Made by a program: the position numbers and the translations under genes. The notes beneath the pieces are model-generated. The model ran no database searches and was not told where the DNA came from. It saw nothing but the letters and a program-made list of their open reading frames with translations. Shown one piece after another: positions 536 through 4,292 of a DNA stretch of 49,942 nucleotides. Each line of letters begins with the position of its first letter. Positions within the stretch are counted from its first letter, which is position 1. This DNA is from Ignavibacteriaceae bacterium (GTDB taxonomy: Bacteria; Bacteroidota; Ignavibacteria; Ignavibacteriales; Ignavibacteriaceae): NCBI GenBank assembly GCA_031292455.1, contig JARLHC010000013.1, positions 1 through 49,942 on the forward strand, in the 5' to 3' direction.

Positions 536-562
536 TCCCGGCTGAGATAAACACAGCCGGGA
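536..562 (-). terminator. Rho-independent terminator after the SprA-like lipoprotein gene
   Basis: A perfect 9-bp GC-rich stem (536-544 pairs with 554-562, 9-nt loop) begins 16 bases past the stop of the minus-strand lipoprotein gene. On the transcript it is followed by a T-rich stretch (ATGGTTTTAATTTT). Position and shape fit an intrinsic terminator. Confidence 0.75.
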
Positions 563-577
563 ATTACACTAATTTTA

Positions 578-1582
578 TTAATCAGGAACAATGGACCCTT
601 TGATTACAAACCCATCCTTTTGAGTTAAAGAACTTTTGGACGAATCATAAATGGCATGATAACTTAGATCTAGTACCTGCTTAGGGCAGTTATTACCGAA
701 TGGCTGCAGAACAGGAAAGATTATATCTGAAGTTGAGGGGAGATAGGTAAAATATGGTCTTTGATCAAATTTTCCATCAGGCACCGGAGCTTCCGAACTG
801 TTAATTTGATCGAATCCGAACAATCTAAGGAAACTATCACTATACCAACTGCTAAAGAGCAGGTTGTTAATTTTATAATATATATTCAGATCAATACTTT
901 TAATAATAGTTCCAAGGTCTATTCGATAAATATTCTTTAACTGAAGTTTCCAGGCATCTTTCATATCAGGGTTCAAGTAAGGAGGTTTAATCATTTTCAG
1001 GACGATCTGATCTTTTTGGCCATTTATTATTTCAGATTCAAATTCGCCATAAGAGCCTTCATCAGTTTTATAAGCAACAGCGAGCAAAGCCCCATCTGCC
1101 GGTTCATTTATTAAATTTATATATCCTGTCTCCGATTGGAATATATAGTCCTGACCATATTCCAATCTTCTAAAATTACCGGAGTATTTTTCTCCAATAA
1201 CCGGCGTTTGATTATACCTTAGGCTATCGTCATATAAAGCAGCTGATTTTCTGACCGGAAGATTAAGATAGGCCCACCCTTTTATATTAGTAACCGGATA
1301 GAAGTAAGAATCAGAAATGTAAAGTTCAAAAGAAGAAATCCTATACCGGGGTACAATTACAGGTACAATATTGCCATAATATTTATTAAACAAATTCAAT
1401 TGTGCAGAGGTATCGGCATAAACCGCATCAATAAAATAGCAGCAATTTGAGTAATCTGTATAATTGATTTCAAAGGAAACTGAATTGTCGTTTGCGGGAG
1501 CAGCAACCGGAGTTATATTATTGTATTCACATCCCGCAAAGAAAAACAAGACCATTATCCCAAACAAGAAGGAGAGTTTCAT
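578..1582 (-). CDS. SprA-like lipoprotein (single repeat unit of the type IX secretion protein)
   Basis: 334 residues. The N-terminus is a lipoprotein signal ending in FFAGC (Cys18). The body matches my recollection of one internal unit of SprA/Sov, the giant outer-membrane translocon of the type IX secretion system. The matching parts are FRRLEYGQDYIF then GYINL (beta-hairpin), LLAVAYKTD, IVLKMIKPPYLNP, AWKLQLKNIYRI, FLRLFGFDQ with PDGKFD, and IIFPVLQPFG near the C-terminus. These are evenly spaced and in SprA order. Full SprA is over 2000 residues, so this is either a free-standing single-unit paralogue or a relic. The reading frame is intact and has its own RBS (AAGG), lipobox and terminator, which favours a real protein. 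It probably sits in an outer or periplasmic leaflet. No other type IX gene is visible nearby. Confidence 0.65.
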   Translation of the reverse strand: MKLSFLFGIMVLFFFAGCEYNNITPVAAPANDNSVSFEINYTDYSNCCYFIDAVYADTSAQLNLFNKYYGNIVPVIVPRYRISSFELYISDSYFYPVTNIKGWAYLNLPVRKSAALYDDSLRYNQTPVIGEKYSGNFRRLEYGQDYIFQSETGYINLINEPADGALLAVAYKTDEGSYGEFESEIINGQKDQIVLKMIKPPYLNPDMKDAWKLQLKNIYRIDLGTIIKSIDLNIYYKINNLLFSSWYSDSFLRLFGFDQINSSEAPVPDGKFDQRPYFTYLPSTSDIIFPVLQPFGNNCPKQVLDLSYHAIYDSSKSSLTQKDGFVIKGSIVPD

Positions 1583-1807
1583 AATTTACCTTTTATTTTA
1601 TTATTTGATATTAATACAACCTCCACCAAGGTTATATTGAAACTCAAATACAGGAAATACTATTTTTCCTTTAAATGGTAATAATAATCTATAACTACTC
1701 TTTTATATTAATAAACCCGCACACTGAGTGATTTGATTTCGAATGGTTTAACGTAAAAAATAAATTTATATTTGTCAATACAAATTATTAGATCCACCGG
1801 AAGGTTA

Positions 1808-3539: not shown

Positions 3540-3566
3540 AAAGGAAGCTAAGTATCAGCTTCCTTT
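3540..3566 (-). terminator. Hairpin overlapping the stop codon of the OB-fold lipoprotein gene
   Basis: A perfect 10-bp stem (3540-3549 with 3557-3566, 7-nt loop). The upstream arm on the transcript encodes the last codons and the TGA stop (3555-3557) of the lipoprotein gene. Only three Ts follow on the minus-strand transcript, while the plus strand has five, so it could work in either direction. I infer a terminator separating this gene from the helicase. Confidence 0.5.
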
Positions 3567-4292
3567 TTCAACTGTTAGATTTGCATCTTCAATCATGACC
3601 TTATAGGTATAACCTGCACCAAAATCTTTATTGGTAGCAATCTTACCCTCAACAATGATAATCTGGCCTACTGATGTCTGATCCTTACTGGTAACCATGA
3701 GATCGTAGTTGCTGCCGGATTCAGTCCCATCCTGGATATGGATCCAGTTCCTTCCCATAATTTCCGGGTTATATTTAACAACCTTACCTCTGACCTTTAC
3801 CATTTGCCCATTCAACATATCCATATTATTATAGATCTGTGCAATAGTTTTTCCGTTTTTAACATGTTCTAAATTTATATCAATTTTAGGAGTAGCCATT
3901 ACCTGCGAATGGGCAGTCTTTGGGTCAACGGGGGGAACGGCATTAGGATTATTCATATTATGAGGAGTCTTTGTTATGTCATCAACAAATAGAATGGATT
4001 CAAAGGTTTTTTTGAGAGTAGGGCTAGGAAAATTCTTCATTTCCATACTTTTAGTATAATACAGAATATCTCCTTTAACGGCATCCACCTTATTTGCTGC
4101 TATCCAATATTTTCTCCCGTTATTCTCACTTACCTGAAGGTAGGAATAATCTTTAGCGTCAATCTTATCCTCAACTTTAACAACATGAGCTCCGGCAGGT
4201 GCATTAACCTGTTGAACTTTTTCTTCTTTCTTTTCGCAGGATGCAAGGATGAATAACGACAAAAAACCAAGGAAGAATAAAGTACTTCTCAT
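3555..4292 (-). CDS. Lipoprotein with OB-fold domain (NrfJ-like)
   Basis: 245 residues with a lipoprotein signal, lipobox LASC (Cys19). The first domain (about 35-110) has the pattern YSYLQVSENNGRKYWIA followed by KGDILYY and MEMKNFPSPTL; the same arrangement occurs in small exported proteins of Geobacter and relatives annotated as NrfJ-like. A His/Pro-rich linker follows, then a second domain (about 145-240) with VKVRGKVVKYNPEIMGRNW and IHIQDGTESG, an OB-fold seen in exported nucleic-acid- or ligand-binding proteins. Biochemical role unknown; probably periplasmic or surface. ATG start with GGAG nearby. It is divergent from the PLP enzyme gene. Confidence 0.65.
   Translation of the reverse strand: MRSTLFFLGFLSLFILASCEKKEEKVQQVNAPAGAHVVKVEDKIDAKDYSYLQVSENNGRKYWIAANKVDAVKGDILYYTKSMEMKNFPSPTLKKTFESILFVDDITKTPHNMNNPNAVPPVDPKTAHSQVMATPKIDINLEHVKNGKTIAQIYNNMDMLNGQMVKVRGKVVKYNPEIMGRNWIHIQDGTESGSNYDLMVTSKDQTSVGQIIIVEGKIATNKDFGAGYTYKVMIEDANLTVEKGS

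What the first reader, a model, noticed from the sequence alone, without database searches (positions are those of the whole stretch)
578..1582. Free-standing single-unit SprA-like lipoprotein
The protein looks like one internal repeat unit of SprA, the roughly 250-kDa translocon of the type IX secretion system, but it is only 334 residues and carries a lipobox. Several SprA-type segments occur in the right order (FRRLEYGQDY, IVLKMIKPPYLNP, AWKLQLKNIYRI, LFGFDQ...PDGKFD, IIFPVLQPFG). An intact frame, own SD, lipobox and terminator suggest a functional gene. A one-unit SprA lipoprotein could be a plug, an assembly partner or a periplasmic cap for type IX secretion.
Basis: partly seen in the sequence, partly recalled or inferred. 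Interest (0 to 1): 0.65.

Follow-up and report, generated by a model that had tools for sequence, protein, structure and literature searches.

The report
Stand-alone SprA cap-domain lipoprotein family
A bacterial lipoprotein gene consists of just one piece, probably the outer cap, of the giant channel that exports proteins by type IX secretion; the same piece appears to have been set free repeatedly in related bacteria, in one family often beside genes for exported cargo, which suggests an unstudied accessory of that export machine.

Summary
The gene (minus strand, 1582 to 578) encodes 334 residues: a lipobox, then a complete copy of one SprA domain. TIGR04189 matches at E=1.7e-29; a profile of 28 stand-alone homologues matches F. 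johnsoniae SprA 6H3I at residues 266-364 and 419-684, E=6e-41. It is no assembly break: sprA lies elsewhere, across two overlapping contigs, and all 25 genomes found with a stand-alone copy also have SprA. The domain is normally single-copy in SprA, not a repeat unit; it lies between barrel strands and holds the equivalent of Q452, which contacts T9SS cargo, so it is probably the extracellular cap.

Stand-alone caps occur in at least 22 of 391 class genomes. They are not one clade (AU p=6e-52); 13 of 27 are closest to their own genome's SprA: recurrent release or concerted evolution. In family f15, 6 of 11 close co-directional neighbours encode type-A T9SS cargo; elsewhere 0 of 13, and the window's gene has none. 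One genome fuses an extra cap to SprA's N terminus.

Best guess, unproven: a lipoprotein binding cargo C-terminal domains or the translocon at its periplasmic face.

The parts
578..1582 (-). CDS, 334 aa, stand-alone SprA cap-domain lipoprotein
   Evidence: TIGR04189 E=1.7e-29; stand-alone homologues in 24 other genomes
1529..1582 (-). Signal peptide with lipobox FFAGC; the Cys to be lipidated is residue 18 (1529-1531)
   Evidence: Read, by eye; Cys column invariant in 28 of 28 stand-alone sequences
593..1477 (-). Domain homologous to the SprA segment between barrel strand '..LTLTALASQKKGE..' and '..FNVVENSVRV..' (residues 36-330)
   Evidence: Alignment with SprA segments; stand-alone profile on F. 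johnsoniae SprA 266-364 and 419-684
1589..1594 (-). SD-like AAAAGG, 6 nt before the ATG
   Evidence: Read; upstream stretches of this gene and 6 homologues printed
536..562 (-). Terminator-like hairpin (stem 536-544 with 554-562, loop 545-553) followed by a U-rich tail
   Evidence: dG -22.3 kcal/mol and z -4.35 for 515-580; coordinates read; not listed by the scan

Best explanation
Shown: the gene encodes a protein with a lipobox and a single SprA domain; the same domain exists as a separate lipoprotein-like gene in a patchy set of genomes of one class of the phylum (probably Ignavibacteria, inferred from one named relative); every such genome found also has SprA; and the stand-alone copies are not one clade, so the domain was released from SprA several times or is kept similar to the resident SprA by concerted evolution. 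Inferred: the domain is SprA's extracellular cap, whose inner face helps hold the folded C-terminal domain (CTD) of type IX cargo inside the pore. Proposed mechanism, unproven: the lipoprotein sits in the outer membrane, most likely facing the periplasm near the mouth of SprA, and uses the cap surface to bind the CTD of cargo (or SprA/PorV), acting as a cargo receptor, holding factor or gatekeeper for the resident translocon. Having to recognise the same CTDs as the resident SprA would explain why many copies resemble their own genome's SprA and why, in one family, they lie next to cargo genes.
For: Homology. Cys invariant in 28 of 28. 25 of 25 genomes found with a stand-alone copy also have SprA, full-length or in frames of at least 1032 aa, and 80 of 80 class genomes with a single match, re-listed as a check, have it in a SprA frame of 766-2404 aa. 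The domain contains the residue aligned with SprA Q452, which contacts the RemZ CTD (PMC10994853, Extended Data Fig. 3 legend; Fig. [quoted passage not shown] passages). Family f15: 6 of 11 same-strand neighbours within 200 bp carry TIGR04183 Por_Secre_tail above its cut-off, against an estimated 6-9% of genes (binomial 1.7e-5 at 6%, 3e-4 at 10%). Natural fusion: a 2572-aa SprA with an extra cap domain right after its signal peptide, the end that is periplasmic in the F. johnsoniae translocon (PMC10994853, passage). 13 of 27 free/SprA pairs are more similar to the own SprA than to any other sequence in the set. Core residues kept, while the SprA-conserved [ED]GF element is in 46 of 54 SprA caps but only 2 of 28 free ones.
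Against: No structure: the AlphaFold model failed (pLDDT 31, two-sequence alignment), so cap fold and position are inferred. The cargo neighbours are confined to f15, a group picked after seeing the data: outside it 0 of 13 neighbours carry a CTD, over all 24 the binomial is 0.0025 (6%) to 0.028 (10%), and L060 and L065 are syntenic, which leaves 5 of 10 in f15 (1.6e-3 at 10%). The background is estimated from candidate counts, not counted. CTD genes may cluster anyway. The window's own nearest gene is an RNA helicase. 14 of 27 pairs are not closest to their own SprA. The side of the membrane is unknown. The fusion is seen in one metagenome-type assembly only.
Confidence: 0.38

Rival explanations
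1. Surface-exposed lid or decoy: the lipoprotein is flipped to the cell surface and mimics the exposed cap of SprA, either as a detachable lid (as SusD lids SusC, recalled) or as bait for phages, toxins or other agents that recognise the cap.
For: The cap is presumably surface-exposed in SprA; release more than once and similarity to the resident SprA fit mimicry; patchy distribution, at least 22 of 391 class genomes, fits an arms-race gene.
Against: Cargo-gene neighbours in f15 and the N-terminal (periplasmic-side) fusion are not predicted. No surface-export signal was tested.
Confidence: 0.2
2. Accessory for SprA biogenesis or a plug: the free cap occupies the empty translocon or helps the barrel fold, without touching cargo.
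For: Found only in genomes with SprA, 25 of 25; it lacks the barrel and keeps the cap core.
Against: A generic assembly factor should be widespread, but most class genomes with SprA showed no stand-alone copy. The known Plug occupies the periplasmic opening (PMC7463736, passages); no relation to it was tested.
Confidence: 0.2
3. Duplication by-products without a retained job: caps are copied out of SprA now and then, survive a while and are lost.
For: Several origins or homogenisations, patchy distribution, and one partial copy with a stop (G666, L073).
Against: The 28 collected copies are frames without internal stops, share 13 invariant columns including the lipobox Cys, and the window's lineage is a clade of 5 (100/100) at 39-45% identity to the window protein, so it has lasted. 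Random fragments would not be expected to gain a lipobox each time. Selection (dN/dS) was not measured.
Confidence: 0.12

Closest known systems
SprA/Sov, T9SS outer-membrane translocon (TIGR04189; 6H3I, 6H3J)
   Same: The mature protein is homologous to SprA residues about 266-684; fold-core residues conserved
   Different: 334 aa instead of mostly 2100-2700; no barrel stretch, no Pfam match, lipobox, 101.8 bits against the 200-bit cut-off; stand-alone copies mostly lack the [ED]GF element
T9SS Plug and PPI subunits (PMC10994853, PMC7463736, passages)
   Same: Possible small partner of SprA
   Different: No relation tested
SprE/PorW, periplasmic part of the extended translocon (PMC10994853, passages)
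   Same: SprE is lipid-anchored and bound to SprA at the periplasmic side
   Different: No sequence comparison was made; the present protein is a SprA domain

Membership tests
SprA/Sov translocon | TIGR04189 equivalog score of at least 200 bits | tested here: not met
   101.8 bits, profile 371-571 of 2319 only
SprA/Sov translocon | Barrel sequence and SprA_N (PF14349) region | tested here: not met
   334 aa, no Pfam match; the one PF14349 match in this genome lies in the full sprA
SprA cap-like domain (residues about 266-684 of F. johnsoniae SprA) | Sequence homology over the whole domain | tested here: met
   (E=6e-41 for the stand-alone profile)
SprA cap-like domain | Same three-dimensional fold and extracellular position | tested here: inconclusive
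   Model pLDDT 31; position inferred from flanking strands and Q452 (PMC10994853 passages)
Bacterial lipoprotein | Signal peptide with lipobox Cys | tested here: met
   FFAGC18 by eye; Cys invariant in 28 of 28; lipidation itself not tested
T9SS component | Required for, or bound to, type IX secretion machinery | not testable with these tools
   Co-occurrence with SprA 25 of 25; cargo neighbours in f15 only

The most novel reading that the evidence does not exclude
The SprA cap is a portable CTD-recognition module that has been released many times as a lipoprotein, sometimes in an operon with its own cargo and once fused to SprA's periplasmic end: a cargo-receptor layer of type IX secretion that is not among the known components.
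Probability: 0.28. Interest if true: 0.8.

Novelty: new variant of a known kind. Interest (0 to 1): 0.58.

Why it matters
How the SprA translocon recognises and admits cargo is only partly understood. A domain of SprA that evolution sets free more than once, with a lipobox, and in one family places beside cargo genes is a ready-made handle on that question: it can be expressed alone and tested for CTD binding, which the 36-strand barrel makes hard. The repeated release (or repeated homogenisation with the resident SprA) is itself an unusual evolutionary pattern.

Tried and rejected
Assembly break or pseudogene of sprA: rejected; frame intact, sprA elsewhere in the genome, and stand-alone copies in 24 other genomes. 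Internal repeat unit: rejected. Single origin of the stand-alone family without later exchange: rejected. Gene conversion in patches as the cause of similarity to the own SprA: identities are broadly even over four quarters, though in several quarters of several pairs another sequence is closer; whole-domain homogenisation is not excluded. Weak PDB matches of the profiles to leucine-rich repebodies look like short PDGxFD similarities and are not taken as homology. G013 C84 hit: the frame looks unrelated beyond its signal peptide (by eye). GldL (TIGR03513) in the own genome: no match, but the control rang nowhere, so it says nothing. AlphaFold failed, so no fold search was run. Literature: searches listed nothing on stand-alone SprA domains among the papers shown; the library lacks most subscription papers, and the single hit (PMC11705866) was not opened.

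Full report
Observation. The window is contig C132 of the genome, whole. The gene runs on the minus strand from ATG 1582 to the stop at 578 and encodes 334 residues. It has a signal peptide ending in FFAGC, an SD-like AAAAGG 6 nt upstream of the ATG (read), and a GC-rich hairpin with a U-rich tail downstream (not listed by the consensus scan). The quoted SprA-type segments are all there, in order.

Identity. NCBIfam TIGR04189 (surface_SprA) matches residues 136-316 at E=1.7e-29, 101.8 bits against a cut-off of 200, over profile positions 371-571 of 2319. Pfam gives nothing, and a single-sequence PDB search nothing. As a query the protein matches in 38 of 41 genomes (own plus 40 relatives), with one match per intact SprA frame, so the stretch is not a repeat unit. 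Aligned with SprA segments, the mature protein covers the stretch between the barrel strand 'LTLTALASQKKGE' and 'FNVVENSVRV'. A profile of 28 stand-alone copies (A4) matches F. johnsoniae SprA (6H3I/6H3J) at E=6e-41, residues 266-364 and 419-684; the smaller three-sequence profile had not found it.

Which part of SprA is it? In F. [quoted passage not shown] PMC7463736, passage). Q452 contacts the bound cargo CTD (PMC10994853, Extended Data Fig. 3 legend), and the CTD is said to interact with 'the SprA cap' (Fig. 5 legend). Q452 lies in the homologous segment (aligned). Tight turns before and after the insert suggest that it leaves and re-enters the barrel at the extracellular end (inference from sequence). 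Of PMC10994853 I saw outline, passages and section 7; of PMC7463736, PMC12635249 and PMC9251779 passages; of other papers search listings only.

Not an artefact. The own genome has sprA in two contigs that share an exact 135-bp overlap at their ends (C97 end, C145 start). Stand-alone copies were found in 7 of 164 genomes of the order and in 22 of 391 sampled genomes of the class. The second figure is a lower bound: one search scored only the best five candidates per genome, its list of places was cut, and only genomes with two or more matches were re-listed. As a check, 80 of about 170 class genomes with a single match whose place had not been listed were searched again with the better profile A4: in 80 of 80 the match lies in a SprA frame of 766-2404 aa, and no stand-alone copy turned up; about 90 were not looked at. 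In all I collected 28 copies from 25 genomes; all 25 also have SprA, some in partial frames (1032 aa or more). The Cys column is invariant in the 28. Outside the class no stand-alone copy was seen: in a sample of 257 phylum genomes, 44 outside genomes had several matches; 43 were re-listed and every match lies in a frame of 2353-2753 aa, and the other, G282, has two SprA frames. Places of some single-match genomes were cut from the list. The class is probably Ignavibacteria: the one named relative found is an uncultured Ignavibacteriales bacterium.

Evolution. In a tree of 83 domains (28 free, 55 within SprA; 304 columns) the free copies need 15 changes of state, 13 of them forced by well-supported branches; holding them as one clade is rejected (p-AU 6.2e-52). 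Seven free copies are sister, with starred support, to the cap of the same genome's SprA (G624, G583, G609, G626, G629, G601, G394). 13 of 27 pairs are most similar to the own SprA, 14 are not. Along the domain the similarity is broadly even, with exceptions in single quarters. So either the cap was released many times, each time with a lipobox, or an older lipoprotein is homogenised with the resident SprA. The window's copy groups with four copies of its own family (100/100) and not with one genome's SprA. A SprA-conserved element after 'NIY' ([ED]GF) is kept in 46 of 54 SprA caps and in 2 of 28 free ones; 8 SprA caps lack it too, so it is a tendency. It would fit a contact with the rest of SprA.

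Context. Clustering of the neighbours found no family shared by all loci besides the cap itself. Neighbours were ORFs of at least 90 aa by a simple rule, so small genes may be missed. In family f15, 6 of 11 same-strand neighbours within 200 bp encode proteins with the type-A T9SS sorting domain above the TIGR04183 cut-off: at L058, L060, L061, L062, L063, L065. Four lie directly downstream with gaps of 8 to 80 nt. The two tandem caps of L059, neighbours of each other, were left out of the count, as was L071's downstream gene (gap 3 nt), which is propeller-like but cut by the contig end before any CTD. In the other families it is 0 of 13; one further gene, 266 bp from L066's cap, scores 20.0 bits against the cut-off of 23. 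One search used a stricter E of 1e-6, L055's neighbour was scanned with Pfam only, and one of L054's is cut by the contig end. The share of such genes in f15 is about 6-9%, estimated from 156-324 first-look candidates per genome (at most 150 scored) and genome size. f15 was singled out after the fact; over all 24 neighbours the binomial is 0.0025 to 0.028. The window's gene has no such neighbour: upstream is an RhlB-like RNA helicase, and downstream the contig ends.

Fusion. In G697 one 2572-aa SprA frame has a nearly complete extra cap domain (profile 9-310) right after its signal peptide, followed by an ordinary SprA with its own cap. SprA's N terminus is periplasmic in the F. johnsoniae translocon (PMC10994853, passage). 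This is the best pointer to a periplasmic, SprA-linked role, but it rests on one assembly of about 430 contigs. In the tree this extra cap groups, with weak support, with SprA caps of its own family.

Mechanism. 'SprA cap domain, lipoprotein, works with the resident SprA' is well supported as to descent and co-occurrence; 'binds cargo CTDs at the periplasmic face' is inference. The attempted structure failed, so neither fold nor interface was tested.

Noticed in passing
L072:1511-9229:- (G697): SprA of 2572 aa with a second, N-terminal cap domain fused in frame after the signal peptide
   Followed up: partly
G549, G593, G515, G658, G363; G282: Genomes with two full-length SprA frames (in G282 the second is 1747 aa); G658 also has two stand-alone caps
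   Followed up: no
L059:6488-8619:- (G583): Two stand-alone caps in tandem, one sister to the own SprA cap, the other outside that pair
   Followed up: partly
L073:5881-6222:- (G666): Partial cap with a stop nearby, in a locus that shares neighbour families with L064, L067 and L069
   Followed up: no
L064:7575-8204, L067:5980-6579, L069:7185-7796: Unnamed secreted-looking protein family (about 200 aa, '..EILPLKIGNEW..') directly downstream of the cap lipoprotein in family f11; no NCBIfam match
   Followed up: partly
window 3555-4292 (-): A second lipoprotein-like gene near the finding, no NCBIfam match at 1e-6
   Followed up: no
own genome G000: 112 Por_Secre_tail matches but no GldL (TIGR03513) match; the GldL control rang nowhere, so inconclusive
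   Followed up: no
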